In this document: piece by piece, positions 22,116 to 35,459 of the stretch | Layout of the letters: each line of letters begins with the position of its first letter | Position numbering within the stretch: position 1 is the first letter of the stretch | Virus record (IMG/VR): IMGVR_UViG_3300046002_003208 | Span: 1-35,459 of that record | Origin: a virus | Strand: one strand, 5' to 3' | Length of the DNA stretch: 35,459 nt | Notes under the pieces: generated by a model | What the model was told of the DNA's origin: nothing | Databases searched by the model: none | The model's input: only the letters and a program-made list of their open reading frames with translations | Program-made: the position numbers and the translations under genes

Positions 22116-22645
22116 TGTCAAGGAGAATAGTAATAAACAATGACGATGAGAGAATAACACTGAATTCCCGAAGTTCACCTGAGATTGTTGTAGTAAGTAA
22201 GAATGAAACTAAGGTAGTTACAGTAAGTTCGGTAGGGCCGAGAGGGCCGAGAGGATTCCTCGGTGGAACATTATTTGGTCAAACGGGAAGTTTCTATACT
22301 ACTACTAATAATTTAAAGGTAACAGGTTCTTTATATGCTTCCCAATTTTTTGGAAGTGGGAATGGTCTATATAACATACCAACAACATCAATAATAAATT
22401 TTGATTCAGAAGTTTCAAAGTCAATGTTTCCGTATGTAGGAAAAGCTGAGATAACAGGTTCTGTACAAATATTAAGACCTAATATAATAGCAGGTTTAGA
22501 TTTTTTTATAATAAGGTCAGGTTCTTTTAATGCTCTTACAGTAACATCAAATGGAGTACTTAAATTAGGTGAGTTCAATGAATTACCACCACCTGTTGCA
22601 GGAGGATTAGCCTATAGTAAAGCAAATTTTTGGATAGGAGTATAA
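22115..22645 (+). CDS. Fibre-associated structural protein with short GPRGPRG segment
   Basis: The protein has 176 residues. The N-terminal 45 residues (MSRRIVINNDDERITLNSRS ... VVTVSSVGPRGPRG) end in a very short collagen-like GPRGPRG. A beta-repeat section with SG-rich strands follows (TNNLKVTGSLYASQFFGSGN, then AEITGSVQILRPNIIAG), like the 'GSLYA...FFGNGSGL' repeats in phage fibre and head-decoration proteins. It ends ELPPPVAGGLAYSKANFWIG, which resembles the final beta segment of fibre-tip proteins. It is co-translated with the upstream beta-sandwich protein. A structural tail role is inferred. Confidence 0.7.
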   Translation: MSRRIVINNDDERITLNSRSSPEIVVVSKNETKVVTVSSVGPRGPRGFLGGTLFGQTGSFYTTTNNLKVTGSLYASQFFGSGNGLYNIPTTSIINFDSEVSKSMFPYVGKAEITGSVQILRPNIIAGLDFFIIRSGSFNALTVTSNGVLKLGEFNELPPPVAGGLAYSKANFWIGV

Positions 22646-22671
22646 TAATGATTTTTTCTTAAATAAATATA

Positions 22672-22679
22672 TATTTATA
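22672..22679 (+). promoter_or_regulatory. TATTTATA promoter-like box
   Basis: The context is AATATA-TATTTATA-GTAAATA. It lies 22 bases before the ATG at 22702, in a 56-base gap that otherwise holds only an A-rich leader. Confidence 0.5.
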
Positions 22680-22701
22680 GTAAATATAAAACTACGTAAC
22701 A

Positions 22702-23634
22702 ATGGCTCAATGGAAAAAAGTATTAGTAAGTGGTTCTAATGCACATGTAACATCGATAACTTCTTCAGTACTAACTAATGATAACTTAGTCATTGCAGGA
22801 GTTGGTGGTAGATTAGAATCAAGTGGTCTTACATTTAATGGAACTAAACTTAATCTAACAGCAGCAACAGTAATATCAGGTTCTATTTTTTCAGGTTCAT
22901 TTGTAGGAAATGGTGCAGGATTAACAGGCTTAGTTTCTGCATTAACTATAGTAGATGAATTTGCAGGTTCGGGTACTGTATCACTAAAAACACAAAATCT
23001 AACTGTAACGGGAGGTGAAGGTATTGACACAGCAATGTCAGGACAGACACTAACCATTTCAGGTGAAAATTCATCATATACAAATAAAGGTGTAGCATCA
23101 TTTTCAAGTGGTAGTTTCTCGGTTAGTTCGGGACATGTTTCACTTGCTAATGCCACAACAGGAGCAGTATTAAGTATTCTAGGAACTGCTAATGAAGTTA
23201 CTGCATCAAGAACTAATGGTACGGTAACTATAGGATTACCTGACAATGTTATTGTTACAGGAGATTTAACTGTAGGAGGTGATTTAGCAGTAAGTGGAGA
23301 TTTAACTTATATTAACACAACTAATTTATTAGTTAAAGACCCATTTATACTAGTTAACTCAGGCTCAGTAAATACTGATTCGGGTATAGTATTTGGAGGT
23401 AGTACAGGTGTAGCAAATAGTGGTTCAGCATTATTTTGGGATGTTAGCTATAATACTAATGATGGTAGATTAGCTGTTGCAAATAATATATCTTGGAATA
23501 ATACAGGAAATCAAACACCAAGTTATTATGTGGCAGGTGTATTTGAAGGAACTGAAGCTAATGCTGCTACTGCTGAAGCTGACCATGTAGGTAATATAAG
23601 AGTAGAAAGTGGACAAATATATATTTACGTATAA
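22702..23634 (+). CDS. Fibre-like structural protein with WKKVLVSGSNA N terminus
   Basis: The protein has 310 residues. The N-terminal motif MAQWKKVLVSGSNAHV is nearly the same as that of the collagen-like fibre at 23994 (MPNWKKVIVSGSNAEL), suggesting a common virion-attachment segment. The body is Gly/Ser/Thr-rich beta repeats, including GSIFSGSFVGNGAGLTGL, DNVIVTGDLTVGGDLAVSGD (left-handed-helix-like spacing) and LLVKDPFILVNSGS. It ends in a compact region with IRVESGQIYIYV. There is no S74 chaperone or enzymatic motif. It is probably a tail-fibre or decoration protein, preceded by its own TATTTATA box. Confidence 0.75.
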   Translation: MAQWKKVLVSGSNAHVTSITSSVLTNDNLVIAGVGGRLESSGLTFNGTKLNLTAATVISGSIFSGSFVGNGAGLTGLVSALTIVDEFAGSGTVSLKTQNLTVTGGEGIDTAMSGQTLTISGENSSYTNKGVASFSSGSFSVSSGHVSLANATTGAVLSILGTANEVTASRTNGTVTIGLPDNVIVTGDLTVGGDLAVSGDLTYINTTNLLVKDPFILVNSGSVNTDSGIVFGGSTGVANSGSALFWDVSYNTNDGRLAVANNISWNNTGNQTPSYYVAGVFEGTEANAATAEADHVGNIRVESGQIYIYV

Positions 23635-23636
23635 AT

Positions 23637-23891
23637 TTGAAATTGTTAATAAATAAAATATTAAAAGTTTTGCCAACAGTTATTAAAAAAGGAATTGCAA
23701 GAAGTCTTTCTCCAACCTATACAGAAAGTGGGGAAGAAGTACAATCAAAAATAACATACACTCCTGAAGAATTACAATATGTAATAACAGTATTGGGAGA
23801 ACAAACATTTAAAATAAAAGATATAGAATTTATATATAATCTTATAATAAAATTACAAGAAGATTATATACAACAATCAAGTAAAAAATAG
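23637..23891 (+). CDS. Unrecognised 84-residue protein, TTG start
   Basis: I do not recognise this protein. No in-frame ATG exists near the 5' end; the frame is open from 23595 and TTG at 23637, two bases after the previous stop, is the best start. The N terminus is hydrophobic and basic (KLLINKILKVLPTVIKKGIA), resembling an amphipathic or membrane-associated helix. The rest (ITYTPEELQYVITVLGEQTF ... IYNLIIKLQEDYIQQ) is helical, like small tail-accessory proteins with a 'TPEELQFLL' motif. The position between fibre genes suggests an assembly accessory. Moderate doubt remains because of the start codon. Confidence 0.6.
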   Translation: MKLLINKILKVLPTVIKKGIARSLSPTYTESGEEVQSKITYTPEELQYVITVLGEQTFKIKDIEFIYNLIIKLQEDYIQQSSKK

Positions 23892-23924
23892 TGTTTTATA
23901 ATAATATATAGAATATTAAATAAA

Positions 23925-23982
23925 TTTATTATTGGCCCTATGGGGAAGTGGGCTTCGAATAGAAGTAACCAACCATAATAAA
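23925..23982 (+). ncRNA. Predicted structured RNA element between fibre genes
   Basis: This short GC-richer island lies in an A+T-rich 102-base gap. The outer stem pairs 23925-23932 plus 23934-23935 with 23973-23982 (10 pairs, T23933 bulged). Inside are two hairpins: 23936-23938 with 23950-23952 (CCC/GGG, 11-base loop), and 23953-23956 with 23962-23965 (CTTC/GAAG, loop GAATA). The layout resembles a small three-way junction ending 12 bases before the ATG at 23994. No U-tract follows, so termination is unlikely. It could be a cis-acting leader structure or processing site. I paired it by eye. Confidence 0.4.
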
Positions 23983-23993
23983 AAATATAAGAA

Positions 23994-25787
23994 ATGCCTA
24001 ATTGGAAAAAGGTGATAGTCAGTGGTTCTAATGCAGAACTAAACAAGTTAAATGTATCTACATCATTTACAGCAAGTGGTTTATTATACCCTACAGCAGA
24101 TGGAGTATTAGGACAAGTTTTAGGAACTGATGGTTTAGGTAAATTATCATTTAGTAATGTAACAGTATCTCAAGTAAACACTATAGCTGCATCTTTTACA
24201 GCTACCTCATCTATAACAGTACCTCATAATTTCAATTCTAAAAATGTAATAGTATCGGCTTATGATGCTTCTGATTTTTACTTTGTTCCCGAAACTATAA
24301 ATTTACTTGACAATAATAGAGTAAAATTAACATTCTCTAACCCATCTACAGGACATGTTGTAGTGGCTAAGGGAGGTCATATAGTTAGTGCAAGTATGCA
24401 GGGAAACCAAGGACTTGTAGGTGCACAAGGATTTCAAGGACTTAGAGGTTTCCAAGGATTTCAAGGTTTCCAAGGATTTCAAGGTATTCAAGGCCCTATA
24501 AGAGAAGTTAGCGAGGTATTCACAGTATCTGCATCTTTTTCCGCTACCTCATCTATAACAGTAACACACAATTTTAATTCTAAAAATGTTATAGTTTCTG
24601 TTTATGATGCTTCTGATTTTTACTTCGTACCTAATCAAATTAAATTACTAGACAATAATAGGGTAAAACTATCTTTTATTAGCCCATCAACAGGATATGT
24701 CGTTGTAGCAAAAGGAGGACATATTGTTAGTGGTAGTTTATATATAGCAGGCCCACAAGGTCTACAAGGCACTACAGGAATACAAGGAACACAGGGTACA
24801 CAGGGTACACAGGGTACACAGGGTACACAGGGTACACAGGGAAACCAAGGTATTCAAGGAACTAACGGAACAGTAGGTGTTAATGGAGCTCAAGGCAATC
24901 AAGGAACTCAAGGTAACCAAGGTGCTCAAGGAAACCAAGGTGCTCAAGGAACTCAAGGTAACCAAGGTGCTCAGGGTAACCAAGGTGCTCAAGGTATTCA
25001 AGGAACAGCAGGTACAAACGGAGCTCAAGGAAACCAAGGTGCTCAAGGTAACCAAGGTATTCAAGGTACAGTAGGTACTCAAGGTTTCCAAGGCAATCAA
25101 GGCCCTACAGGAATTCAAGGTACAGTAGGAACTCAAGGAGCAACAGGAGCAAGTGCAGGAATAACATCATACACAAACCCTGCTGATAATAGAGTATTAA
25201 CATCGGTATCATCAACAGCTATAAATGCAGAAGCAAATTTAACATTTGATGGAAGTACATTAGGTGTATCGGGGCTTACTTACACATCGAGATTACAGGT
25301 AGCTGGAAATGGGTCAGATGCAGGTTCTCAGTTATCTCTTTGGGCTGATGCAAATGGTAATACAGGTATAGCAGGATTTAACATTACTTTTAATACAGGT
25401 GGTAATAATGCAAGAACACAAAGTTTATTTATATCCAACACAGGAGCAGCTACTTTTAGTAGTACAGTTACTTGTACAACATTAACAGAAACTTCAACTA
25501 TAAGGATAAAAGAAAATGTAGAAGATATTGAAAATCCCTTAGAAATAGTTAAAAAGTTAAGAGGCATACAATACAACAAGATAGGAAACAATAACAAAGA
25601 AATAGGTGTTATAGCAGAAGAAGTATACGATATTTTACCACAGATTGTTAACTTGGACGATGAGAATCAACCATCTTCTGTGTCTTATGGTAGATTAACA
25701 GCATTATTAATAGAGGTTGTGAAAAAACAAGATGAGCAAATTGAAAATCTAACAAAAAGGATTGAGGAGTTAGAAAATAAATTATAA
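23994..25787 (+). CDS. Collagen-like tail fibre with duplicated beta domain and S74 chaperone
   Basis: The protein has 597 residues. The N-terminal attachment motif is PNWKKVIVSGSNA (2-14). A domain of about 67 residues occurs twice, at 67-133 and 181-248, sharing TSSITV, HNFNSKNVIVS, YDASDFYFVP and VVVAKGGHIVS. Short (about 136-168) and long (about 253-390) collagen-like Gly-x-Gln stretches follow each copy. The C-terminal S74-type chaperone begins near TSTIRIKENV (500-509), with IGVIAEEVYDILPQIV and a terminal coiled coil QIENLTKRIEELENKL. The self-cleavage motif reads ST-I-R-I-K instead of SDxRxK, so autocleavage may be altered. It is probably a trimeric receptor-binding or side fibre, paralogous in design to the 961-residue fibre upstream. 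Confidence 0.87.
   Translation: MPNWKKVIVSGSNAELNKLNVSTSFTASGLLYPTADGVLGQVLGTDGLGKLSFSNVTVSQVNTIAASFTATSSITVPHNFNSKNVIVSAYDASDFYFVPETINLLDNNRVKLTFSNPSTGHVVVAKGGHIVSASMQGNQGLVGAQGFQGLRGFQGFQGFQGFQGIQGPIREVSEVFTVSASFSATSSITVTHNFNSKNVIVSVYDASDFYFVPNQIKLLDNNRVKLSFISPSTGYVVVAKGGHIVSGSLYIAGPQGLQGTTGIQGTQGTQGTQGTQGTQGTQGNQGIQGTNGTVGVNGAQGNQGTQGNQGAQGNQGAQGTQGNQGAQGNQGAQGIQGTAGTNGAQGNQGAQGNQGIQGTVGTQGFQGNQGPTGIQGTVGTQGATGASAGITSYTNPADNRVLTSVSSTAINAEANLTFDGSTLGVSGLTYTSRLQVAGNGSDAGSQLSLWADANGNTGIAGFNITFNTGGNNARTQSLFISNTGAATFSSTVTCTTLTETSTIRIKENVEDIENPLEIVKKLRGIQYNKIGNNNKEIGVIAEEVYDILPQIVNLDDENQPSSVSYGRLTALLIEVVKKQDEQIENLTKRIEELENKL
24791..24841 (+). repeat. 9-bp microsatellite in fibre shaft
   Basis: Five perfect copies of ACAGGGTAC start at 24791, 24800, 24809, 24818 and 24827, followed by ACAGGG (836-841). 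Each unit encodes Gly-Thr-Gln. Slippage would change shaft length by three residues without breaking the frame. Confidence 0.93.
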
Positions 25788-25806
25788 ATAAACTAAATAA
25801 ACTAAA

Positions 25807-26049
25807 ATGAAAAAGTACTATCAAGTAGAGAATTATGGAAATGGGTTTATTACTCACCAAGAAAATGAAACGGCACATGTTGCAGGATATCCGGGCAATA
25901 TTTGGGTGACAGAAAACACAACATGGGCACAAAGAGTAAATGCTGTTGAAAAGACTAAAGCGGAGGCACAAGCTATTGTAGATGCTGCTGTCGAGGCAAG
26001 TTATGTCCCACCCAATAGCACAACACCTCCACCTATTGTTTTACCTTAA
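25807..26049 (+). CDS. Unrecognised 80-residue protein
   Basis: I do not recognise a family. It opens MKKYYQVENYGNGFITHQEN, then HVAGYPGNIWVTENTTWAQR, a helix VEKTKAEAQAIVDAAVEASY and a Pro-rich tail (NSTTPPPIVLP). The 'W-x-x-x-T-x-A-Q-x-x-x-D-A' helix is reminiscent of small proteins that follow fibre genes in phages, but that is only an impression. It lies 19 bases after the collagen-like fibre and 9 bases before the next gene, so it is part of the tail-accessory transcript. Confidence 0.62.
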   Translation: MKKYYQVENYGNGFITHQENETAHVAGYPGNIWVTENTTWAQRVNAVEKTKAEAQAIVDAAVEASYVPPNSTTPPPIVLP

Positions 26050-26058
26050 AAATTAAAT

Positions 26059-26742
26059 ATGAGTAAAGAGTTGCAGATTACGGAAGATTTACGAGAGATT
26101 GTAAATGTTTTAAATGAAGAAGATGCTAATACTATTTTATCATTAAAAGATGAGTTAGTTGATAATTGGCATAAGAAGCAGATTTTTAGAACAGAGACAG
26201 AAATGAGAGTCTCTGTTTTAAATGACGCTAAACACCCTACAAATGCTTCTAAATATTGGCAATCAGTCAGAGAGATGTCAGCACATTTTGATGCATTGAT
26301 GAATTTATCTTTTGATTTGAGAAAGAATACGGTAGAGAATTTAAGATATAATAGACAGATGGAAGAGTATACGGAAGACCCTAATGCTAATAGATTTGAC
26401 ATCATGGAACTTGAAATTGATATTGATAGAAATTTATATGATAGGTCATGTATGTTACAAGTAGCTAAAGATAGGGTTAGGGAATTAAGTTTATGGAGTA
26501 CAATTAAGAAAGAATTAGACGATAATTCTTTTGATGCAGAAAATGTAAACACTCACCAAGCAGAGTCTTTGCATAGGTATTTTGAGAATAGGGTTAAGTC
26601 TTTAAATGATTCATCTGCCCCGGGGGAAATCATCAATGCCATGGGCCCGTACCTATCCTTCAATCGATTAAAAACAGATGATGGTAAATTAAGAAATTTT
26701 TTGGGAGAAGTATCTGAAGACACTAAAAAGAAGTTAAACTAG
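26059..26742 (+). CDS. Conserved phage helical protein (unknown function)
   Basis: The protein has 227 residues and is nearly all helical. The section NWHKKQIFRTETEMRVSVLN, DAKHPTNASKYWQSVREM and the following long helix (LMNLSFDLRKNTVENLRYN) form a block I associate with a conserved T4-like marine phage protein of unknown function. The C-terminal part (HQAESLHRYFENRVKSLND ... GPYLSFNRLKTDDGKLRNFLG) is less familiar. There is no membrane segment or enzyme motif. It sits just before three oxygenase genes (4-base gap) and may share their transcript, but a functional tie is not shown. Confidence 0.68.
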   Translation: MSKELQITEDLREIVNVLNEEDANTILSLKDELVDNWHKKQIFRTETEMRVSVLNDAKHPTNASKYWQSVREMSAHFDALMNLSFDLRKNTVENLRYNRQMEEYTEDPNANRFDIMELEIDIDRNLYDRSCMLQVAKDRVRELSLWSTIKKELDDNSFDAENVNTHQAESLHRYFENRVKSLNDSSAPGEIINAMGPYLSFNRLKTDDGKLRNFLGEVSEDTKKKLN

Positions 26743-26746
26743 TTTT

Positions 26747-27331
26747 ATGACCAATTTCATTTATGCTAAAAAAAATGCTATATCAATTAATACATGTTAC
26801 AATCTGATAAAAGCATTTGAAGAATCTGATTTAAAACAAGCAGGAGTTCTATACGGCCCAAACGGAATATCCTCAGACAGCGACAAGAAATCCACAGACA
26901 TCACATTTGACCCATCGTTCCTAAAGAAAGAACCATGGGCAATGTTATTAGAAGAGGTAATCTCATCGGTTCAAAATGGAGCACTAGACTATTTGAATAG
27001 ACATTCCACAGCTATGACTAAAATGGATGCTATTGATTTGTACACTTATTTTAATATTCAGAAGTATGAACCTAACGAAGGATTCTTTGGATGGCATTGC
27101 GAAAGAGCAGGTAATAAACATTCAGATAGATTACTAGTTTGGATGATATATTTAAATGATTTAACGGACAGAGGAGAGACGGAGTTTTTTTATCAGCAGC
27201 ATTTTGAGACACCTGAGAGAGGAAAACTATTGATATGGCCCTCCGATTGGACTCACCTGCATAGAGGAGTTCCGTCTCCTACTCAAACAAAGTATATATT
27301 AACAGGTTGGTTTACCCATATAAAAAATTAA
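26747..27331 (+). CDS. 2-oxoglutarate/Fe(II) oxygenase, prolyl-4-hydroxylase-like
   Basis: The protein has 194 residues. The double-stranded beta-helix core holds iron ligands His117 and Glu119 (GWHCER), distal His172 (WTHLHRG) and Lys182, 10 residues after the distal His. That is the same His-to-Lys spacing as in prolyl 4-hydroxylases for 2-oxoglutarate binding. Supporting motifs are VWMIYLNDL, RGETEFFYQQ and KLLIWPSDW. The first carboxylate is Glu instead of the usual Asp. Such enzymes hydroxylate proline or other residues with O2 and 2-oxoglutarate. It is first of three oxygenases in a row. The substrate is unknown; the Thr-Pro-rich protein in this window is an attractive candidate (inference). 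Confidence 0.82.
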   Translation: MTNFIYAKKNAISINTCYNLIKAFEESDLKQAGVLYGPNGISSDSDKKSTDITFDPSFLKKEPWAMLLEEVISSVQNGALDYLNRHSTAMTKMDAIDLYTYFNIQKYEPNEGFFGWHCERAGNKHSDRLLVWMIYLNDLTDRGETEFFYQQHFETPERGKLLIWPSDWTHLHRGVPSPTQTKYILTGWFTHIKN

Positions 27332-27334
27332 GTT

Positions 27335-27931
27335 ATGGAGTTTAGTGTTCATCAAGAGAATTGGTTTTCCACTCCAATATGGGAATCCGAAATAAAGAAT
27401 ATAAACAATCAGGAAATTAAAGATTACTGTTTATATTTGAAAGACAATACTAAGGGAGTTAATATTTCGAATAGGGGAGGATGGCATAGCAGTGAGATAT
27501 TACTCCCAATGCCACAAGATTTGAGAAGTTTGTTTAGCAATCTTGAAGTATTTGTGAATGAGAATTGCTTTAAAGAAATGGGAGTACCTAATTTAAAGTT
27601 TGGTAATTTTTGGGTAAATATAAATACACCTAACTCCTACAACCTTGCACACGACCATCAAAATAGTATATTATCAGGAGTGTATTATGTTTCTGTACCT
27701 CACGACAATATGGGTGATTTAGTTTTGCATAGAGGAGATACAGCAGAGTATTTCTTAAAATCAGATGTAGAAAGAATTGGCACAAAAGCAAACTCTTTTG
27801 TAGCGGTAAAAAAACCTATAGAATCTGTCTTTTATATATTTCCATCATGGGTTAAGCATCATGTGGAATCGAATAATTCGCAAGGAGATAGAATATCAAT
27901 AGCATTTAATTTCATCGCAGAAAATAAATAA
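27335..27931 (+). CDS. Putative 2OG-Fe(II) oxygenase (TIGR02466-like), copy 1
   Basis: The protein has 198 residues. It belongs to the phage/cyanobacterial family opening '(F/Y)-x-T-P-[IL]' (here NWFSTPIWESEI). The centre has NFWVNINTP followed by NLAHDHQNSILSGVYYVSVP, with candidate iron ligands His106 and His108, or Asp107 by the HxD/HxH pattern. The distal His175 is in FPSWVKHHVESN, and Arg186 in DRISIAFN would hold 2-oxoglutarate. The reaction and substrate are uncharacterised for the family; hydroxylation is expected. It is separated from its neighbours by 3 and 4 bases, so it is co-transcribed with the P4H-like gene and the second family copy. Confidence 0.8.
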   Translation: MEFSVHQENWFSTPIWESEIKNINNQEIKDYCLYLKDNTKGVNISNRGGWHSSEILLPMPQDLRSLFSNLEVFVNENCFKEMGVPNLKFGNFWVNINTPNSYNLAHDHQNSILSGVYYVSVPHDNMGDLVLHRGDTAEYFLKSDVERIGTKANSFVAVKKPIESVFYIFPSWVKHHVESNNSQGDRISIAFNFIAENK

Positions 27932-27935
27932 AGTT

Positions 27936-28574
27936 ATGAACGCACAAGTTTATCCCATATTTCCAACACCTCTATATGTTGTAAATTATGATAAAGATTT
28001 AAAACATGTAATAGATTATTTTGACAGTTCAGAAATGCAAGATACTAAAGCAGGATATGGAATGATATCTACTAATAGTTACATTTTAGATAATCCTATA
28101 TGCAATGAATTAAATACATTTCTTATGTCATGTTTTGAAGATTTTGCAACAAACATTATGAGATATAGATTTAAAAAATTAGGATTTGCACAATCATGGT
28201 TAACATATAAGAATCCCAACCAAATTCATAAAGCACATACTCATCCAAATACATTATTAGCGGGAGTATTCTATTATGATGCACATGAGGATGATGCTGC
28301 TATATGTTTTTCAAAAGATGTTAAATCATTTAATAGGTCATACTTCGAACCATCTTTACATGACGATTATCAAAACCATGTATTTTCACAAGAAGAGATT
28401 TACTACATGCCAAAGAAAAATGATTTCCTCATATTTCCATCATGGTTAACACATGGTGTACCACCTAACAAAACAAACAGAGTGAGAAAAGCATTAGGAG
28501 TAAATGCCTTAACGAAAGGAACATTAGGAGATAAAGAAACCATATCTGAAATAATTTTTGGAAGATACGCATGA
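27936..28574 (+). CDS. Putative 2OG-Fe(II) oxygenase (TIGR02466-like), copy 2
   Basis: The protein has 212 residues and the same fold as the preceding gene: IFPTPLYVVNYDKD at the start, AQSWLTYKNP, candidate iron ligands His101 and His103 (KAHTHPNTLLAGVFYY), distal His173 (FLIFPSWLTHGVPPN) and Arg182/Arg184 for 2-oxoglutarate. The two copies are well diverged, so this is not a recent duplication and they may have different substrates. Its stop overlaps the sulfotransferase start (ATGA at 28571-28574), which argues that the oxygenases and sulfotransferase act in one pathway. The substrate is unknown. Confidence 0.8.
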   Translation: MNAQVYPIFPTPLYVVNYDKDLKHVIDYFDSSEMQDTKAGYGMISTNSYILDNPICNELNTFLMSCFEDFATNIMRYRFKKLGFAQSWLTYKNPNQIHKAHTHPNTLLAGVFYYDAHEDDAAICFSKDVKSFNRSYFEPSLHDDYQNHVFSQEEIYYMPKKNDFLIFPSWLTHGVPPNKTNRVRKALGVNALTKGTLGDKETISEIIFGRYA

Positions 28575-29389
28575 AACAGAAGATATTTTTTAATTCCACA
28601 TTACCAAGAAGTGGTAGTACCTTATTACAAAACATAATGGGACAAAATCCTGAATTCTTTGTAACACCGACATCAGGTCTAATTGATTTGATGTTAGGAG
28701 CAAGAATAGGATACAATCAAAACTATGAATCAAAGGCAGGTGATACAGAAATGTGGAGAGAAGGATTCTATAAATTTTGCGGGGAAGGAATAAAAGCATA
28801 TATAGCATCACAAACATCAAAACCATATTACTTAGATAAGAATAGAGTGTGGGGATTTTACTACAATTTATTAACGCATATTGTAGAAAAACCAAAAGTG
28901 TTATACATGGTTAGAGATTTACCATCTATCTTCGCATCTATGGAAAAGAAGTTTAGAATGAATCCTGACAAAGATGATGGTACTATGGATAATGTAAAGA
29001 TGAAAGGAACTACAACACATAAGAGAGTTGAATTATGGGCTCAATCACATCCTGTAGGTTATTCATTAGAAAAATTATATCAGACTTTGTTGGATGGTAC
29101 AGCTTCCAACTTTTTATTTATTAGATATGAAGATTTATGTAGTAATCCTGACAATGTAATGAAAAGCATCTATCAATATTTGGAGTTAGATGAATTTAAA
29201 CATGATTTCCAACATATAAGTCAAGTCACTACCGAAAATGATGCAATACATGGAATATATGGAGACCACATCATAAGAAATTCTCTTAAAATGTTGCCAA
29301 ATGATTCAAAAGAAATATTAGGAATGCATACGGTAGATTTGATTAAAGAGAATTATAAATGGTATTATGATTTCTTTGGGTATAAATAA
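28571..29389 (+). CDS. Sulfotransferase (PAPS-dependent)
   Basis: The protein has 272 residues. The 5'-phosphosulfate-binding loop is LPRSGSTLLQ (11-20). The 3'-phosphate-binding element is MVRDLPSIFASM with Arg115 and Ser119. Later come FLFIRYEDLCSNP and IYQYLELDEF, typical of the Sulfotransfer family. It transfers sulfate from PAPS to a hydroxyl or amine, commonly on a carbohydrate or tyrosine. No membrane anchor is present, so it acts in the cytosol of the infected cell and depends on host PAPS. Translation is coupled to the preceding oxygenase. The acceptor is not known; a phage-made glycan or hydroxylated protein would fit the context. Confidence 0.85.
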   Translation: MKQKIFFNSTLPRSGSTLLQNIMGQNPEFFVTPTSGLIDLMLGARIGYNQNYESKAGDTEMWREGFYKFCGEGIKAYIASQTSKPYYLDKNRVWGFYYNLLTHIVEKPKVLYMVRDLPSIFASMEKKFRMNPDKDDGTMDNVKMKGTTTHKRVELWAQSHPVGYSLEKLYQTLLDGTASNFLFIRYEDLCSNPDNVMKSIYQYLELDEFKHDFQHISQVTTENDAIHGIYGDHIIRNSLKMLPNDSKEILGMHTVDLIKENYKWYYDFFGYK

Positions 29390-29402
29390 AGTTGGGATAG
29401 GA

Positions 29403-29410
29403 TATTTATA
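29403..29410 (+). promoter_or_regulatory. TATTTATA promoter-like box before Kelch-like adhesins
   Basis: The context is GGATAGGA-TATTTATA-ATAAAAG. It is only 10 bases before the ATG at 29421, the shortest spacing seen. If it is a -7/-10 element, the mRNA would be almost leaderless. It probably drives the three paralogous adhesin genes. Confidence 0.5.
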
Positions 29411-29420
29411 ATAAAAGAAT

Positions 29421-30386
29421 ATGGCTAAATTACAGAGTAGTGAAATAGTAGGTGTTGCTAATAGACCTGCAACAATATGTTCAAATACGATGTGCATTTG
29501 GTTTGACACAACAAATTTAAAAACGGTTATTTCCTATTGTGGATATAGTGGAGCAGGTACTTGGTCAGTAGGGGGTGCACTGATAACGGCAAGAGGCAGA
29601 TTAGGTGGTGCAGGTACACAAAATGCAGGTATTGCTATGACGGGTTTTACAAATATAAATGTAACATGTACTGAAGAATACAATGGTGCTACATGGGCAG
29701 TAGGGGGTGCTGTTATAACTGCAAGAAACCACCCCGCAGGTGCAGGAACACAGAATGTTGGCGTTTTATTTGGTGGTTTTAATGGGGCTCATCTCTCATG
29801 TACTGAAGAATACGATGGTACATCTTGGTCAGCAGGAGGTGCAATGATAATAGCAACTCATCTACATATAGGTGCAGGTTCACAGAATGAGTCACTTTCA
29901 TCAGGAGGTTATGTAAACGGCCCTCAATTATGTACAGAAGAATATAATGGTACAAGTTGGTCAGTAGGGGGTGCATTAATTAACAATAGAAGTTATTCAG
30001 CAGGAGCAGGTACACAGAACTCAGGTTTAATTATTGGTGGTAGGATTGCAGGTAATGTTATGGTATCATGTACAGAAGAATATAATGGTACATCTTGGTC
30101 ATCAGGAGGGGGTTTAATAACTGCAAGACGTAGTATGGGTGGGTCAGGTTTGCAAAATGAAGCATTGTCAGCAGGTGGTTATACTGCGGGTGCAAGAATT
30201 GCATGTACCGAAGAATATAATGGTACATCTTGGTCAACTGCAAGTCCTGTTACAGTGGCTACTTGGTATGGCGCAGGAGCAGGTACACAAGGAGAAACTA
30301 TTGTTTTTGGTGGTTATGTGAGTTCGGTTGTAGCATGTACCCAAGAATACAATAAACCATTAGCAATAATAGATTCAACACAATAA
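29421..30386 (+). CDS. Kelch-like six-repeat propeller protein, paralogue 1
   Basis: The protein has 321 residues. The N-terminal 50 residues (AKLQSSEIVGVANRPATIC, then CIWFDTTNLK) are shared with the next two genes and probably attach to the virion. Six repeats of about 42-48 residues follow. Each has a Trp-x-x-GG strand, ITAR, GAGTQN, a GG and then CTEEYNGT, matching the Kelch spacing of GG, Tyr and Trp in a beta-propeller blade. The sixth blade is degenerate (WSTASPVTVATWYG) and the end is CTQEYNKPLAIIDSTQ. Nearly every blade carries one Cys. There is no signal peptide. It is probably a tail-tip or fibre adhesin. It is the most diverged of the three copies. Confidence 0.8.
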   Translation: MAKLQSSEIVGVANRPATICSNTMCIWFDTTNLKTVISYCGYSGAGTWSVGGALITARGRLGGAGTQNAGIAMTGFTNINVTCTEEYNGATWAVGGAVITARNHPAGAGTQNVGVLFGGFNGAHLSCTEEYDGTSWSAGGAMIIATHLHIGAGSQNESLSSGGYVNGPQLCTEEYNGTSWSVGGALINNRSYSAGAGTQNSGLIIGGRIAGNVMVSCTEEYNGTSWSSGGGLITARRSMGGSGLQNEALSAGGYTAGARIACTEEYNGTSWSTASPVTVATWYGAGAGTQGETIVFGGYVSSVVACTQEYNKPLAIIDSTQ

Positions 30387-30387
30387 T

Positions 30388-31341
30388 ATGGCAAAATTAC
30401 AAAGCACAGAGATAGTAGGTGTTGCAAATAGACCTGCAACAATATGTTCCAATAGTGTTTGTATTTGGTTTGATACAACTAATACTAAAATAGTTTATTC
30501 ATATTGTGGGTATAGCGGAGCAGGTGTCTGGTCAGCAGGGGGTGCAATGATAACTGCAAGATATGGTTTAGCAGGGGCGGGAACTCAAAATGAAGGACTT
30601 GCAGCAGGAGGTGTTACTGTAACATGCACAGAAGAATATAATGGTACGTCTTGGTCAGTAGGGGGTGCGTTGATAACAGCAAGGTATTATTTAGCAGGAG
30701 CAGGTACACAAAATACAGGACTTGTAGCAGGAGGTTATAATGGTGCAAGTCTTTCTTGTACAGAAGAGTATAATGGTACATCTTGGTCAGTAGGTGGGGC
30801 ATTGATAACTGCAAGATATTATTCAGCAGGAGCAGGTACACAAAATATAGGTCTTGTAGCGGCAGGTTATTCAAATGCAGCTTCAGTATGCACAGAAGAA
30901 TACAATGGCACATCATGGTCAGCAGGGGGTGCATTGATAACAGCGAGGGGTTATTTGAGCGGTGCAGGAACACAGAATGAAGGATTTGTTGCAGGAGGTT
31001 ATAGTCCTACAACATTATCATGCACAGAAGAATATAATGGTACGTCTTGGTCAGCAGGTGGTGCTTTAGCAACTGCAAGATATGGTTCAGCAGGAGCAGG
31101 TACACAAAATGAAGGACTCGTAGCAGGAGGTTACTCATCAGGAATTGGCAATCTTTCATGTACCGAAGAATACAATGGCACATCTTGGTCAGCAGGAGGG
31201 GTGTTGATAACAGCAAAGCACTATATGGCTGGAGCAGGTATACAAGGTGCAGGACTAATAGCGGGAGGTTATTCAAATGCAGCAGTAGCCTGCACCGAAG
31301 AATACAATAAAGCATTAGCAATAATAGACTGTATTAAATAG
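30388..31341 (+). CDS. Kelch-like six-repeat propeller protein, paralogue 2
   Basis: The protein has 317 residues and starts one base after the previous stop. The N-terminal module (AKLQSTEIVGVANRPATIC, CIWFDTTNTK, SYCGYSGAG) is nearly identical to paralogue 1. It has six very regular blades built on WSAGGALITARY, AGAGTQNEGL, AAGGYS and CTEEYNGTSWS. Their uniformity, stronger than in the other two copies, suggests recent homogenisation by gene conversion or a shared ancestor duplicated blade by blade. It ends CTEEYNKALAIIDCIK. The expected fold is a six-bladed propeller with Cys in each blade near the GG turn. The role is inferred as receptor binding. Confidence 0.82.
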   Translation: MAKLQSTEIVGVANRPATICSNSVCIWFDTTNTKIVYSYCGYSGAGVWSAGGAMITARYGLAGAGTQNEGLAAGGVTVTCTEEYNGTSWSVGGALITARYYLAGAGTQNTGLVAGGYNGASLSCTEEYNGTSWSVGGALITARYYSAGAGTQNIGLVAAGYSNAASVCTEEYNGTSWSAGGALITARGYLSGAGTQNEGFVAGGYSPTTLSCTEEYNGTSWSAGGALATARYGSAGAGTQNEGLVAGGYSSGIGNLSCTEEYNGTSWSAGGVLITAKHYMAGAGIQGAGLIAGGYSNAAVACTEEYNKALAIIDCIK

Positions 31342-31351
31342 AATATACAAT

Positions 31352-32326
31352 ATGGCAAAATTACAGAGTAGTGAAGTTGTTGGAGTTGCAAATAGACCTG
31401 CAACAATATGTGTAAATACGGTATGTTTATGGTTTGATACAACAAATTTAAGACCAATGGCATCTTATTGTAAAAGAAGTGGAGCGGGAGTTTGGTCAGC
31501 AGGGGGTGCATTGATAACTGCAAGATATGGTGTCGGTGCAGCAGGAACACAAAATGAAGGACTTGCTGCTGGTGGGTATGTAAATACTGCTGCAGGTGTT
31601 AGTTGTACAGAAGAATATAATGGCACAAGTTGGGCGGTAGGTGGTGCATTAATAGTGGGTAGAATTTATTTAATCGGTATTGGTTCTCAAAATAGTGGAC
31701 TTGTTGCGGGTTGTTATACGACAGGTGCATGTACTGAAGAATATAATGGTACATCTTGGTCAATTGGAGGTGTATTAATAACAGGCCGATATGGTATAGG
31801 TGGGGGTGGAACTCAAAACGAAGGATTAGCAATAGGCGGTGTTTCAACAACAAACTTAGCATGTACAGAAGAATATAATGGTATAAGTTGGTCAACAGGT
31901 GGCGCATTAGCAACAGCAAGAGGATGTACAGCAGGTGCAGGAAGTCAGAATAGCGGATTAGGGTTTGGTGGTCGTACTAATGCAGGTGTAAACGTAACAT
32001 GTACAGAAGAGTATAATGGAACATCATGGTCAGCAGGTGGTATATTGATAAATAGTCGTAGATTTGCTGCAGGATTTGGAACACAAAATGAAGCATTAAC
32101 TACAGGCGGAAATGCTGTAGGCAATTTATTAACATGCACTGAAGAATATAATGGTACAAGTTGGTCAACGGGTGGCTCATTAGCAACAGCAAGATATTTA
32201 GTTAGTGGAGGAGGCTCGCAAGGTTCGGGATTTATTGCTGGTGGATATGTTTCAGCAAATCCTGGAGTTGCTTGCACTGAAGAATACCTAAAATCATCAT
32301 ACACAATAGTAGATTGTATCTTATAA
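31352..32326 (+). CDS. Kelch-like six-repeat propeller protein, paralogue 3
   Basis: The protein has 324 residues, 10 bases after paralogue 2. It has the same N-terminal module (AKLQSSEVVGVANRPATIC, CLWFDTTNLR) but SYCKRSGAG in place of SYCGYSGAG. There are six blades with more varied loops: the GG of blade 2 is GC (VAGCYTTGACTEEYNG), and loops carry VNTAAGV, TTN, TNAGVNV, VGNLL and VSANPGV insertions. It ends CTEEYLKSSYTIVDCIL. Most variation falls in the loops between the GG and CTEEYN positions, as expected if that propeller face contacts a changing receptor. Glycosyltransferase genes follow. Confidence 0.8.
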   Translation: MAKLQSSEVVGVANRPATICVNTVCLWFDTTNLRPMASYCKRSGAGVWSAGGALITARYGVGAAGTQNEGLAAGGYVNTAAGVSCTEEYNGTSWAVGGALIVGRIYLIGIGSQNSGLVAGCYTTGACTEEYNGTSWSIGGVLITGRYGIGGGGTQNEGLAIGGVSTTNLACTEEYNGISWSTGGALATARGCTAGAGSQNSGLGFGGRTNAGVNVTCTEEYNGTSWSAGGILINSRRFAAGFGTQNEALTTGGNAVGNLLTCTEEYNGTSWSTGGSLATARYLVSGGGSQGSGFIAGGYVSANPGVACTEEYLKSSYTIVDCIL

Positions 32327-32347
32327 TAAACAAATAAAAGTTATAAT

Positions 32348-33223
32348 ATGAATAAATACATTGTTTGGCACATTCAAGGTGGGTTAGGAAAGAATGTTGC
32401 AGCAACAGGATTACCAAAGACAATAAAGGAAGTGTATAGTGACAGACAACTTATAATGGTTGTATCATATCCCGAAGTTTTCCTAAATAATCCATACGTT
32501 GACAGAGTATATCCATTAGGTAATTGCCCCTACTTTTACGAGGATTTTATAGAGAATAAGGATACCCTTGTTTTTAGGCATGAGCCGTATCATCAAACAG
32601 GACACATTTTAAAGCATAAGCATTTAATTAACAATTGGTGTGATTTACTTGGAATAGAATACAGCAATCAAACACCTCAATTATATCCAAATTACTCAGA
32701 GAAGATAAATGCGAAGAAATGGTTTAGAGATAAGCCTGTCGTAGTATTACAAACATCAGGTGGTGAATTAGAATCAAAAAATGTTTATTCATGGTGTAGA
32801 GATATGCCACAAGATATAGCACAGTTAATTGTAGATAAATATAAAGATTCATTTCATATATTTCATGTATCAAGGCAAGGAGGATATGTTTTAAATGATG
32901 TTGAAAGAATTGATACAAAGTTATCTAATATGGAATTATTTAGCATGTTAACTGTATCATCTAAGAGATTTTTAATTGACTCATCTTTGCAACATGCAGC
33001 GGTAGCCATTAATTTACCATCTGTTGTATTTTGGGTTGGGACATCTCCGCAAGTTTTTGGTTACGATATGCATACGAATATTGTGGCGAAGCAGATTAAT
33101 AATAAAAATCATTTAATTGGCTCTTACCTATTTGACTTTCAGTTTGATTATAATGTGCATGAATGTCCGTACAGTACCTTAGAAGAAATGTTTGATATAA
33201 ATGATGTAATTAATAAGATATAA
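32348..33223 (+). CDS. GT9-like (heptosyltransferase-fold) glycosyltransferase
   Basis: The protein has 291 residues with a GT-B-like layout. A Gly-rich N-terminal loop (HIQGGLGKNVAATGLPKTI, 8-26) is followed by LIMVVSYPEVFLNNPYVDRV and VYPLG. The C-terminal half has VVVLQTSGGE (131-140), FHIFHVSRQGG, and DSSLQHAAVAINLPSVVFWV with GTSP (211-234). That last block is the nucleotide-sugar-binding signature of ADP-heptose:LPS heptosyltransferase relatives. The family is GT9-like; the sugar is not identifiable. The next gene starts directly after its stop, so the pair probably acts together. Confidence 0.72.
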   Translation: MNKYIVWHIQGGLGKNVAATGLPKTIKEVYSDRQLIMVVSYPEVFLNNPYVDRVYPLGNCPYFYEDFIENKDTLVFRHEPYHQTGHILKHKHLINNWCDLLGIEYSNQTPQLYPNYSEKINAKKWFRDKPVVVLQTSGGELESKNVYSWCRDMPQDIAQLIVDKYKDSFHIFHVSRQGGYVLNDVERIDTKLSNMELFSMLTVSSKRFLIDSSLQHAAVAINLPSVVFWVGTSPQVFGYDMHTNIVAKQINNKNHLIGSYLFDFQFDYNVHECPYSTLEEMFDINDVINKI

Positions 33224-34141
33224 ATGAAATTTTGCATAGCTACATTGACTCATAGATATGAAGATAGAGATGTTTATTTAAGAAAGACTGTAGAAAGTTT
33301 TATAGATAATACAGAATTTGATGGCATGTTTGATTGGTACATTCATTGTAATGGTCAATATGATTTAATGGATGATGTCATTAAAGAGATGACTAGTAAA
33401 TATTGGGATAAGATTAATTTTTACTATTCCTCATCTCCTGATAACATGGGAGTAGGTGTTGGTATTAATTATCTGAATTCATTGGTTAGAGATTATGAGT
33501 ATGTTTTATTTTTGGAAGGAGATTGGATTTGTTTGCCCGGCGAAATTTCTGGTCATAATGATTGGTTACGAGATTGCCTTAATTACTTAGACGAAAACAA
33601 AAATATCAGTCAAGTGTTACTAAGAAGATACATAAGTGATTTGGATGATAGGCAGTATGGTTATGGATATTGGATAAGAGAAGATAATATAAAAAGTGTG
33701 GGGAAGTTAAAAAATACATACCTACATTTACATAAGAAAGAATATACCAACAATCCATACATAAGAAGAAACAATGATTTTTATGATAAGAACATATTAC
33801 CATTAAATGAATTTTATGATGAAAATGGATTACCTAATGAAATTAAAGGTTTATCCATGTGGGGACAAGCTGAGATACAAGCAGAGTCAAAAGGATATGA
33901 AATAGAATCATGTTATCTAGCATTTGGAAACATGGTACATTGTGAAGCATGGAATTATTATAAAGAGTATGATAAATTAATTGAGGAAGATATGACATGT
34001 AAAAAGTATTTAGATGTTGGTAAAGCAGGATGTAAATATGGATACTTCTTCCCCGCAAAAAAGTTCTGTGATGTATGTGACCATTCTAAAAACTTCATGG
34101 ATTTAGAAAGACACGAACAAGAATACGAAAGTAAATTATAA
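33224..34141 (+). CDS. GT2-like (GT-A) glycosyltransferase with Cys-rich tail
   Basis: The protein has 305 residues. The N-terminal GT-A fold reads FCIATLTHRYEDRDVYLRKT, then FDWYIHCNG, NMGVGVGINYL, and YVLFLEGDWICLPG with EGDW (98-101) as the DxD-like metal/nucleotide-sugar site. Residues 110-230 are a phage-type insertion with GYGYWIRE and EIKGLSMWGQAEIQAES. The C terminus contains KAGCKYGYFFPAKKFCDVCD, with several Cys that could bind zinc. It abuts the GT9-like gene and precedes an oxygenase by 4 bases. The product glycan and acceptor are unknown. Confidence 0.75.
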   Translation: MKFCIATLTHRYEDRDVYLRKTVESFIDNTEFDGMFDWYIHCNGQYDLMDDVIKEMTSKYWDKINFYYSSSPDNMGVGVGINYLNSLVRDYEYVLFLEGDWICLPGEISGHNDWLRDCLNYLDENKNISQVLLRRYISDLDDRQYGYGYWIREDNIKSVGKLKNTYLHLHKKEYTNNPYIRRNNDFYDKNILPLNEFYDENGLPNEIKGLSMWGQAEIQAESKGYEIESCYLAFGNMVHCEAWNYYKEYDKLIEEDMTCKKYLDVGKAGCKYGYFFPAKKFCDVCDHSKNFMDLERHEQEYESKL

Positions 34142-34145
34142 AGCT

Positions 34146-35075
34146 ATGACACATAAAAGTAATTTTGAGAATGTTTTTTGGCATATTGATAGTATGCAAT
34201 TAATTAGCAACGACTTATATGAAGTAAGTGGTTGGATTTTTAGTACAGAAGGAAGTGTTAAAAAAATAATTATAGGAGACGTAGAATATGCTAATCTCCA
34301 AAATGGATTGTACCCTAGAAAAGATGTTAAAGAAGTATATAATTATTTACCTAATGATTTAGTAGGTTGGACATTTACAGTATCTAAAGATGTTTTAAAA
34401 TCTCCTATAAATATTGTTTTAGATTCAGAATTGCAATATGAAAATATAGGTACTTTAGATTCTTGGCGTGTGTTTAATTCAGGTTTTAACTCTAATTCAA
34501 ATAAAAGTATTATTGTTATAGATAATTTTTATGACAATCCTGATTTAGTAAGAGATTACGCTTTGCATAATTTAAATTATTTAGAATCTGACTATCATAA
34601 AGGTAGGAGAAGTGACAAACCATTTATATTAAATGGTACATTAGAAAAGTTTGAAGAAATTTTGGGAAGACGTATCTACAATTGGAATCATCCCAACTAT
34701 GCTAATGGAAGATTTCAATACTGTACATCTACTGACCCTATAGTATATCATGTAGACTCTCAGAATTATGCTGCCATGGTTTACCTAACTCCTGACGCAC
34801 CATTACAAAGTGGAACTGCAACTTATAAAAGTATACATACAGGAAAAACAAAATTTGAAGAAGTAGTTGGAGAAGAGTATGAAACAACTTTTAGAGGAAG
34901 GAGTGATGAATTAAATTTCTATGATAAAACATCTTTTGAGATGGTAGATAATATTGCAAATGTATATAATAGATTAGTATTGTTTGATTCAAAAAATATA
35001 CATGCTGCTATAAACTACTTTGGTGACACTAAGGAAAATAGTAGATTTTTTCATTTATTCTTTTTTGATATATGA
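34146..35075 (+). CDS. DUF6445-type 2OG/Fe(II) oxygenase-like protein with extra N-terminal domain
   Basis: The protein has 309 residues. Residues 1-115 form a beta domain (LYEVSGWIFSTEGSVKKIII; LVGWTFTVSKDVLKSPINIV) resembling the 'V-x-G-W' Ig-like modules attached to sugar-active phage proteins. Residues 120-309 match the DUF6445 family as I remember it: VIDNFYDNPDLVRDYAL, KGRRSDKP, FQYCTSTDPIVYHVD, MVYLTPDAPLQSGT, NVYNRLVLFDSKNIHAA and NSRFFHLFFF. Candidate iron ligands are His202, Asp204 and His286, with Arg300 for 2-oxoglutarate. The activity is uncharacterised. Its stop overlaps the next glycosyltransferase start (ATGA at 35072-35075), tying oxygenase and glycosylation genes together again. 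Confidence 0.75.
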   Translation: MTHKSNFENVFWHIDSMQLISNDLYEVSGWIFSTEGSVKKIIIGDVEYANLQNGLYPRKDVKEVYNYLPNDLVGWTFTVSKDVLKSPINIVLDSELQYENIGTLDSWRVFNSGFNSNSNKSIIVIDNFYDNPDLVRDYALHNLNYLESDYHKGRRSDKPFILNGTLEKFEEILGRRIYNWNHPNYANGRFQYCTSTDPIVYHVDSQNYAAMVYLTPDAPLQSGTATYKSIHTGKTKFEEVVGEEYETTFRGRSDELNFYDKTSFEMVDNIANVYNRLVLFDSKNIHAAINYFGDTKENSRFFHLFFFDI

Positions 35076-35459
35076 AGATTAGATTTCATGTTATAACTAG
35101 ATGTACAAGACCTCAAAATCTTTTACAGATATATGATAGTTTCAATTACACTGAGAATAGTAAGTATTTTGTAATTTGGCATGTATTATTCGATACTTCA
35201 TCTTTGATTGATATTGATTCCAAATTGCTTTTAGATTTAGATAGGTTAAATGCTCACTTACATTTTATAGAAAGTGATGGTAGTGATTATCTATATCCTC
35301 AAATAAGTGAGGTTGTTAGTAATATTAATACGGGATGGGTTGTAATTATGGATGACGATAACATATGCTATCCTAATTATTTTGATATTCTTAATGATGA
35401 AATAAGAACTAACGTAAAGTCGGCTTATGTTTACGAACAAGAAGTCAATCTTTTCTTCT
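35072..35459 (+). CDS. GT2-like glycosyltransferase, truncated by window end
   Basis: The ATG at 35072 overlaps the previous stop and the frame is open for 129 codons to the window edge. The translation begins MKIRFHVITRCTRPQNLLQI, a GT-A start similar to GT2 enzymes ('VVI-T-R-[NC]-x-x-x-x-L-x-x-[ST]'). It has FVIWHVLFD, a run HLHFIESDGSDYLYPQISE, and WVVIMDDDNICYPNYFDIL with DDD at 94-96 as the metal-binding motif. The C-terminal part is missing. It is distinct from the upstream EGDW transferase. It extends the glycan cassette beyond this window. Confidence 0.75.
   Translation, partial: MKIRFHVITRCTRPQNLLQIYDSFNYTENSKYFVIWHVLFDTSSLIDIDSKLLLDLDRLNAHLHFIESDGSDYLYPQISEVVSNINTGWVVIMDDDNICYPNYFDILNDEIRTNVKSAYVYEQEVNLFF

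What the first reader, a model, noticed from the sequence alone, without database searches (positions are those of the whole stretch)
29421..32326. Three tandem Kelch-like propeller paralogues with a shared anchor and varied blade loops
Three adjacent genes share a near-identical N-terminal module and six blades each. Variation is concentrated in the loop between GG and CTEEYN. Eighteen similar repeats of about 132 bp in 2.9 kb offer extensive homology for gene conversion or deletion. This looks like an adhesin set built for receptor diversification, or a hetero-oligomeric tip. One Cys per blade at an equivalent position is unusual for a cytoplasmically assembled phage protein.
Basis: partly seen in the sequence, partly recalled or inferred. 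Interest (0 to 1): 0.7.

Follow-up and report, generated by a model that had tools for sequence, protein, structure and literature searches.

The report
Phage Kelch-propeller adhesins with swappable propellers
Three neighbouring genes of an uncultivated T4-like phage each encode a six-bladed Kelch propeller on a conserved anchor; among close relatives the anchors and neighbouring genes stay the same while the propellers are almost wholly different, so these look like exchangeable host-recognition heads.

Summary
Genes A (29421-30386), B (30388-31341) and C (31352-32326) encode 321-, 317- and 324-aa proteins, each with a 46-aa N-module and six 41-46-aa blades. The N-modules are similar (73-86% aa), not near-identical. 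AlphaFold (pLDDT 90) plus PDB sequence and fold searches show a six-bladed Kelch propeller. The array lies in the host-recognition region of a T4-like genome; relatives hold 1, 2, 3 or 5 copies between the same flanking genes, and related propellers occur fused to collagen/S74-chaperone fibres.

Main result: in the closest relatives, flanking genes (96-98% aa), N-modules and C-tails are conserved slot by slot (N-modules 18/18 on the right slot), but the blades between them are only 54-70% identical, hardly better between orthologues than paralogues, and diverged at silent sites (pS ~0.5 versus 0.1-0.25 next door). Variability concentrates in the A-B and C-D loops, on one face. In a downstream three-propeller ORF a recent exchange tract (99.5% over 1.9 kb) begins at a propeller boundary. 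I infer whole-propeller cassette replacement between conserved anchors; blade-by-blade conversion is at most rare. Virion location is inferred. New variant of a known kind.

The parts
29421..30386 (+). Kelch paralogue A, 321 aa: N-module, six blades, C-tail
   Evidence: PHROG_27227 E 2.5e-40
30388..31341 (+). Kelch paralogue B, 317 aa; starts 1 nt after the stop codon of A
   Evidence: AlphaFold pLDDT 90.1, pTM 0.83; Kelch folds in PDB; phmmer to PDB 9tsn 'Kelch protein' E 3.8e-10
31352..32326 (+). Kelch paralogue C, 324 aa
   Evidence: PHROG_27227 E 4.8e-34
29421..29558 (+). N-module of A (46 codons): conserved anchor; ends where identity to relatives drops
   Evidence: 95-100% aa against slot A of G4/G5/G6
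30388..30525 (+). N-module of B
   Evidence: 95-100% aa against slot B of G4/G5/G6
31352..31489 (+). N-module of C
   Evidence: 91-95% aa against slot C of G4/G5/G6
29559..30344 (+). Hypervariable propeller cassette of A (six blades)
   Evidence: 54-58% aa, pS 0.51-0.57 against G4/G5/G6
30526..31299 (+). Hypervariable propeller cassette of B (six blades)
   Evidence: 67-70% aa, pS 0.46-0.54
31490..32284 (+). Hypervariable propeller cassette of C (six blades)
   Evidence: 58-64% aa, pS 0.49-0.64
30345..30383 (+). C-tail of A (less conserved)
   Evidence: 69-92% aa
31300..31338 (+). C-tail of B (13 codons, ...NKALAIIDCIK): conserved slot by slot; predicted extra strand after the last blade strand
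   Evidence: 85-92% aa, pS 0 against G4/G5/G6; strand 310-316
32285..32323 (+). C-tail of C
   Evidence: 92-100% aa, pS 0 against G4/G5/G6
29403..29410 (+). TATTTATA motif 18 nt before the start of A; candidate phage promoter for the array; none before B or C
   Evidence: present in the same place in seven relatives
28571..29389 (+). Flanking sulfotransferase-family gene (left border of the array in relatives)
   Evidence: Pfam Sulfotransfer_3 E 7.2e-16; 95-97% aa in G4/G5/G6/G7
32348..33223 (+). Flanking 291-aa gene (VWHIQGGLGKN; family unassigned, glycosyltransferase-like by eye), right border of the array
   Evidence: no confident Pfam or PHROG family; 96-98% aa in G4/G5/G7
23994..25787 (+). 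Collagen/S74-chaperone tail fibre gene upstream (context)
   Evidence: Pfam Collagen E 1.5e-25, Peptidase_S74 E 2.2e-11

Best explanation
A, B and C are most likely tail- or fibre-associated adhesin subunits of a T4-like phage. Each is a small anchor, made of the N-module together with the C-tail, that carries one six-bladed Kelch propeller. The anchor fixes the protein in a given slot of the particle and evolves vertically. The propeller is the recognition head, with variable A-B and C-D loops on one face. Head diversity arises mainly by replacing the whole propeller cassette through recombination in the conserved sequence on either side of it, together with gain and loss of whole genes, rather than by blade shuffling or a programmed mutator. 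Shown here: fold (predicted with high confidence), synteny, conserved anchors with divergent blades, copy-number change, variable loops, and one exchange tract ending at a propeller boundary in a sister ORF. Inferred: virion location, receptor binding, and that the A/B/C cassettes changed by the same route.
For: Fold: pLDDT 90, pTM 0.83; Foldseek to Kelch domains at E 1e-16 with TM about 0.7; profile to PDB Kelch chains at E down to 6e-15. The blade starting with strands C-D at the N end is closed by strands A-B from the C end, so N-module and C-tail leave the propeller at the same blade (topology). Anchor against head: sulfotransferase 95-97% aa; N-modules pooled 95-98% aa with pS 0.14-0.19; C-tails of B and C with pS 0; blades pooled 60-64% aa with pS 0.50-0.59. 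The drop falls at nt 120-180 of each gene; tracts of at least 96% identity end at nt 137-159. N-modules pick the right slot in 18/18 comparisons among W, G4, G5 and G6, blades in 10/18. Pool-like heads: against distant G9 the flanks have pS 0.68 but blades still 0.50. Gene gain and loss: 1 copy in G7, 2 in G8, 3 in six genomes, 5 in G2 between the same neighbours. Direct exchange: in the three-propeller ORF, W and G4 are 74-83% identical over propeller 1, then 99.5% over 1887 nt from its last strand onward, the G4 form being supported by two further contigs. Loops: A-B loop pN/pS 1.05 and C-D tip 1.12; strand B 0.04. Virion: related propellers sit in ORFs with S74 chaperones, two of them also with collagen stalks; the locus lies between an S74 fibre and a neck/sheath/tube block, matching the host recognition cluster of T4-like pelagimyophages (PMC7029224). 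A Kelch protein of phage CBB is in the virion by mass spectrometry (PMC5259590).
Against: No donor of the A/B/C propellers was found: outside the identical contig the best relative is about 75% identical, so replacement there is inferred. A weak orthology signal remains in blades (10/18 where 6 are expected; B strongest). Blade-sized recent duplications exist in relatives (126 nt at 96.8% in G7's 12-blade ORF; 149 nt at 99.3% in L033), so blade-level change also occurs. No virion proteomics. PHROG_27227 is of unknown function and Pfam models do not recognise the window proteins. N-module residues 1-15 are predicted with low confidence. The W version of the three-propeller ORF rests on one metagenomic contig.
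Confidence: 0.6

Rival explanations
1. Blade-by-blade shuffling: gene conversion, duplication and deletion between the 132-bp repeats within and between the genes generates the diversity.
For: Recent blade-sized duplications in relatives (126 nt 96.8% in L083/L010; 149 nt 99.3% and 344 nt 97.4% in L033). One G2 paralogue has lost a blade (278 aa). Nearest blades often lie at a different position.
Against: Among 1770 pairs of 44-aa blades only two exact runs reach 40 nt (45 and 40); a column-Markov null gives a maximum of 34 on average and up to 48. Blades within a gene are about 72% identical, hardly more than between genomes at 70%. Silent sites are diverged. The other N-module genes nearly all have six blades.
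Confidence: 0.2
2. Rapid in-place divergence: diversifying selection on the blades with no replacement.
For: pN/pS about 1.05-1.12 in the A-B loop and C-D tip against 0.04-0.56 in strands.
Against: Silent sites in blades are also far more diverged (pS about 0.5) than in the N-module and C-tail of the same gene (0-0.2), which selection on amino acids alone does not give. Blade divergence does not grow with genome divergence.
Confidence: 0.1
3. The three proteins are not virion adhesins but intracellular proteins (host takeover, anti-defence or scaffold) that happen to lie in the late region.
For: No trimerisation or stalk motif is obvious in A/B/C; neighbours include enzymes (2OG-FeII oxygenase, sulfotransferase); Kelch proteins of poxviruses act inside cells (prior knowledge).
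Against: Fusions of related propellers to collagen stalks and S74 chaperones, position beside fibre, neck and sheath genes, high variability of one loop face, virion Kelch precedent (PMC5259590).
Confidence: 0.15
4. Metagenome assembly artefact: chimeric joins inside repeats create the apparent anchor/head discordance.
For: Repeats are prone to mis-assembly; the W three-propeller ORF comes from one contig.
Against: The window and an IMG/VR contig agree to 2 mismatches in 13 kb; G2 and G3 agree (1 difference in about 10 kb) and eight contigs agree exactly through A-C; the G4-type large ORF occurs in three contigs. Blades are too divergent (about 70%) for short-read assemblers to merge easily.
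Confidence: 0.03

Closest known systems
Mosaic phage tail fibres and adhesins with conserved N-terminal attachment part and variable receptor-binding tip; host recognition cluster of T4-like marine phages (PMC7029224); metaviromic islands (PMC3909814)
   Same: Conserved anchor with hypervariable distal part, in the tail-fibre region of a T4-like genome, among sugar-modifying genes
   Different: The variable part is a single Kelch propeller conserved at both ends (N-module and C-tail), carried by one to five tandem paralogues, each slot with its own anchor; neither paper mentions Kelch
Kelch proteins of jumbo phages (CBB_550/552/554, PMC5259590; PhiPA3, Noxifer and Phabio 'virion structural protein' hits)
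   Same: Kelch fold in large contractile-tailed phages; CBB_552 detected in the virion; clustered copies
   Different: Remote in sequence (11-18% in the fold matches); no evidence seen for a shared swappable anchor
Beta-propeller receptor-binding proteins: phi11 Gp45 five-bladed platform, PRD1 P2, PhiKZ gp131C (PMC4901313)
   Same: Propeller as probable receptor-binding domain of a phage
   Different: Other propeller types and blade numbers; phi11 has a triple-helical stem and C-terminal tower domains
Diversity-generating retroelements and the major tropism determinant (prior knowledge)
   Same: Diversified adhesin face on a stable scaffold
   Different: No reverse transcriptase in 14 records searched (incomplete genomes); no variation inside clones; silent sites also diverged
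Eukaryotic and designed Kelch propellers (NS1-BP, KLHL12, Keap1; SAKe6 designs)
   Same: Six-bladed Kelch fold
   Different: Variable face here is A-B/C-D; to my knowledge Keap1 binds its peptide with the opposite loops (B-C/D-A)

Membership tests
Kelch-repeat six-bladed beta-propeller | Repeats of about 44-56 aa with GG, a conserved Tyr about a dozen residues on and a Trp a few residues later | tested here: met
   GG...TEEYNGTSW in all but a few blades
Kelch-repeat six-bladed beta-propeller | Sequence similarity to known Kelch domains | tested here: met
   phmmer to 9tsn E 3.8e-10; profile to KLHL12, KLHL17, Keap1 and others, E 1e-14 to 1e-7. Pfam Kelch models miss the window proteins
Kelch-repeat six-bladed beta-propeller | Six four-stranded blades in a closed ring | tested here: met
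   AlphaFold pLDDT 90 with the expected strand order and Foldseek TM about 0.7; prediction only
PHROG_27227 | Profile match | tested here: met
   E 2.5e-40, 3.8e-44, 4.8e-34; function unknown
Phage receptor-binding protein / tail adhesin | Present in the virion | not testable with these tools
   Only context: S74/collagen fusions of related propellers and the fibre/neck/sheath neighbourhood
Phage receptor-binding protein / tail adhesin | Binds a host surface receptor and determines host range | not testable with these tools
   Variable loops on one face are suggestive only
Phage receptor-binding protein / tail adhesin | Conserved attachment part with variable distal part among relatives | tested here: met
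Diversity-generating retroelement target | Reverse transcriptase encoded nearby | tested here: not met
   No RVT_1 in 14 records, although these are fragments
Diversity-generating retroelement target | Amino-acid change far above silent change in a defined variable repeat | tested here: not met
   pS about 0.5 across blades
Programmed phase or antigenic variation by repeat recombination | Different arrangements within one clone | tested here: not met
   Eight contigs identical through A-C; consensus assemblies could hide minor variants

The most novel reading that the evidence does not exclude
A natural propeller-exchange display system: T4-like phages keep a few slot-specific split anchors (N-module plus C-tail) and rotate whole Kelch propellers from a very large shared pool through them, singly (A/B/C) or as beads in a fused three-propeller fibre, so that each phage shows several different recognition heads at once on one conserved scaffold.
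Probability: 0.35. Interest if true: 0.7.

Novelty: new variant of a known kind. Interest (0 to 1): 0.5.

Why it matters
It gives a clean natural example of modular receptor-head exchange in an uncultivated phage group: anchor, swap points and variable face can all be read from sequence. If the heads bind host surface glycans or proteins, copy number and head type per genome become a readable proxy for host range in metagenomes, and the propeller is a ready case for studying how a repeat fold tolerates large loop diversity. I found no report of it in the open papers searched, though only open-licence papers are held.

Tried and rejected
(1) DGR: no RVT_1 in 14 records. (2) Clonal variation: eight contigs identical in A-C, so no visible phase variation. 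(3) Recent blade-to-blade conversion: exact-run test against a column-Markov null shows no clear excess. (4) Cultured relatives: tblastn of 50,697 phage records gives only one weak hit, 25% identity in a Paenibacillus phage, so no isolate is at hand. (5) Host: the genome-contig scan gave eight MAG contigs from unrelated taxa (Flavobacteriaceae, Nitrosotalea, Methanothrix, SAR324, Actinomycetes), possibly binned viral contigs; no host is claimed. (6) Five-blade paralogue of G2 (L005:9968-10801): model inconclusive (best pLDDT 72, the other four 35-40). (7) Disulfide or metal ring from the blade Cys: model coordinates are not given by the tools, so geometry was not measured; considered unlikely because the site also takes N, S, A, V and I. 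(8) N-module on other heads: no clear non-Kelch ORF with this module in the fetched loci; the single hit (L154) is itself Kelch-like. (9) Paper searches for Kelch arrays in phage returned only CBB and a single mention in cyanophage P-HM2.
Full report
OBSERVATION. The window is an IMG/VR virus record of 35,459 bases with T4-like head genes (terminase, portal and Gp23 capsid). Three ORFs lie head to tail at 29421-30386, 30388-31341 and 31352-32326, 1 and 10 nt apart. Each has a 46-aa N-module and six blades, 18 in all; blades are 41-46 aa, and 18 of 18 carry a Cys just before T(E/Q)EY. The N-modules are 73-86% identical in protein and 72-81% in DNA, so 'near-identical' is too strong. The repeats are real (paralogue E-values near 1e-120).

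WIDER ANATOMY. A second contig (IMGVR 3300046028_003758) is identical to the window over 22388-35449 except for 2 bases. It continues into a 1083-aa ORF of three propellers (L088:16601-19849), in which the second propeller, at least, is preceded by its own N-module-like stretch (CMWYDKTNNMPM), then another one-propeller ORF, then neck-adaptor, sheath and tube genes. Upstream of A-C lie a collagen/S74 fibre (23994-25787), a 2OG-FeII oxygenase and a sulfotransferase-family gene. This is the position of the host recognition cluster in T4-like marine phages (PMC7029224). Related propellers in other contigs sit on many different N-termini, often in multiples of about six blades; four such ORFs tested carry an S74 chaperone and two of these also collagen repeats.

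FOLD. AlphaFold2 with 41 sequences gives pLDDT 90.1 and pTM 0.83 for B. Foldseek finds Kelch domains (NS1-BP, KLHL17, KLHL12, Keap1 and designed SAKe6 proteins) at E about 1e-16 to 1e-15, and in viral proteins Kelch and 'virion structural' proteins of large phages. A profile finds Kelch chains in the PDB by sequence alone, while Pfam's Kelch models miss the window proteins. The strand order shows that the first chain segment supplies strands C-D of one blade and the last segment its strands A-B. The N-module hairpin and the extra C-terminal strand (310-316) therefore leave the ring at the same place. I infer that they form one split anchor; this would explain why both ends, and not the middle, are conserved slot by slot.

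ANCHOR VERSUS HEAD. Relatives were fetched by B, by the sulfotransferase and by the right-hand neighbour. Genomes are named W (window), G4, G5, G6, G7, G8, G9, G14 and G2. In W against G4 and G5 the adjacent flanking genes are 96-98% identical in protein. N-modules pooled are 95-98% with pS 0.14-0.19, and the C-tails of B and C have no silent change. The blades between them are 62-64% identical with pS 0.50-0.51; against G6 the blades are 60% with pS 0.59. Identity per 60 nt falls from 0.95-1.0 to about 0.55-0.85 near nt 120-180 of each gene and recovers in the next gene. Among W, G4, G5 and G6 the N-module of each slot finds its own slot in 18 of 18 comparisons; the blade regions do so in 10 of 18, where 6 are expected by chance. 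Against the distant G9 the flanks are at pS 0.68 but the blades still at 0.50: blade divergence does not follow genome divergence, as expected if heads come from a common pool. A caveat is that biased codon use in Gly/Ala/Thr-rich blades could lower their silent saturation level.

COPY NUMBER. Between the same flanking genes there is one Kelch gene in G7, two in G8, three in W, G4, G5, G6, G9 and G14, and five in G2. In G2 two neighbouring N-modules are 96% identical in DNA while their blades are 70%.

A DIRECT EXCHANGE. In the three-propeller ORF, W and G4 share the N-terminal part (0.95-0.98 falling to about 0.89), differ over propeller 1 (0.74-0.83), and from its last strand (about nt 1363) to the end are 99.5% identical over 1887 nt. 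The surrounding genomes are 82-95% identical. The G4 form is seen in three contigs. This is a recent exchange whose edge lies at a propeller boundary. Only one contig gives the W form.

BLADE-LEVEL CHANGE. Blades of these genes show no clear sign of recent mutual conversion (longest exact runs 45 and 40 nt among 1770 pairs; null maximum averages 34, reaching 48). Blade-sized near-identical duplications do exist in relatives (L083/L010 and L033), and one G2 gene has five blades. Blade-level events occur but do not look like the main source of diversity here.

VARIABLE FACE. Across 60 blades of 44 aa the most variable columns are 13-14 (C-D loop tip, mean 3.4 bits) and 30-36 (A-B loop, 2.6 bits), with pN/pS 1.12 and 1.05; strand B is nearly fixed (pN/pS 0.04) and the other parts lie between 0.4 and 0.8. 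In a four-stranded meander the A-B and C-D loops are on the same face.

EXPRESSION. TATTTATA stands 18 nt before A and in the same region in seven relatives, but not before B or C. In the window, 7 of 12 copies on the + strand lie within 60 nt upstream of a gene start, a zone covering 6% of the sequence. It may be a promoter element of this phage shared with structural genes.

CYSTEINE.

MECHANISM AND VERDICT. The evidence favours a slot-specific anchor with an exchangeable Kelch head. Shown: fold, conserved ends with divergent middle, copy-number change, one exchange edge at a propeller boundary, variable loops. Inferred: virion location, receptor binding, and cassette replacement as the route for A/B/C. 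Against alternatives: no reverse transcriptase in 14 (partial) records, no variation in eight identical contigs. It works like mosaic tail-fibre adhesins; membership in receptor-binding proteins cannot be tested here. A Kelch protein in the virion of phage CBB (PMC5259590) and propeller-type receptor-binding proteins (PMC4901313) are precedents. I class it as a new variant of a known kind.

Noticed in passing
window 29403, 10195, 15807, 20618, 21697, 22672 (+ strand TATTTATA): TATTTATA lies 18-31 nt upstream of several gene starts (7 of 12 copies within 60 nt upstream of a start); candidate phage promoter element. Its reverse complement, TATAAATA, is the T4 late-promoter motif as I recall it, so orientation needs care.
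   Followed up: partly
L099:4150-7737 versus L100:2980-6927: In otherwise identical clonal contigs a collagen-like repeat fibre carrying a Kelch domain and an S74 chaperone differs by 360 nt (1196 versus 1316 aa), either a real repeat-length change or an assembly effect.
   Followed up: no
L005:9968-10801 (G2, fifth paralogue): A 278-aa paralogue with five blades instead of six, with slot-C N-module and C-tail; its structure prediction was inconclusive.
   Followed up: partly
L107:9799-11106 (G7): An ORF with the MRID...QLSGSLF anchor of the three-propeller protein but a collagen stalk and no Kelch propeller: the same anchor with a different head.
   Followed up: partly
L033:3552-8222: Internal repeats of 344 nt (97.4%) and 149 nt (99.3%) inside a 1557-aa Kelch ORF: recent internal duplication.
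   Followed up: no
window 26747-28574: Three adjacent ORFs that look like 2OG-Fe(II) oxygenases (only 27936-28574 tested by profile), kept in order beside the Kelch array in the relatives; target unknown.
   Followed up: no
all blades, residue before TEEY: Strong preference for Cys (82% in this family, 68% in other fetched Kelch ORFs) at an equivalent blade position; reason unknown.
   Followed up: partly
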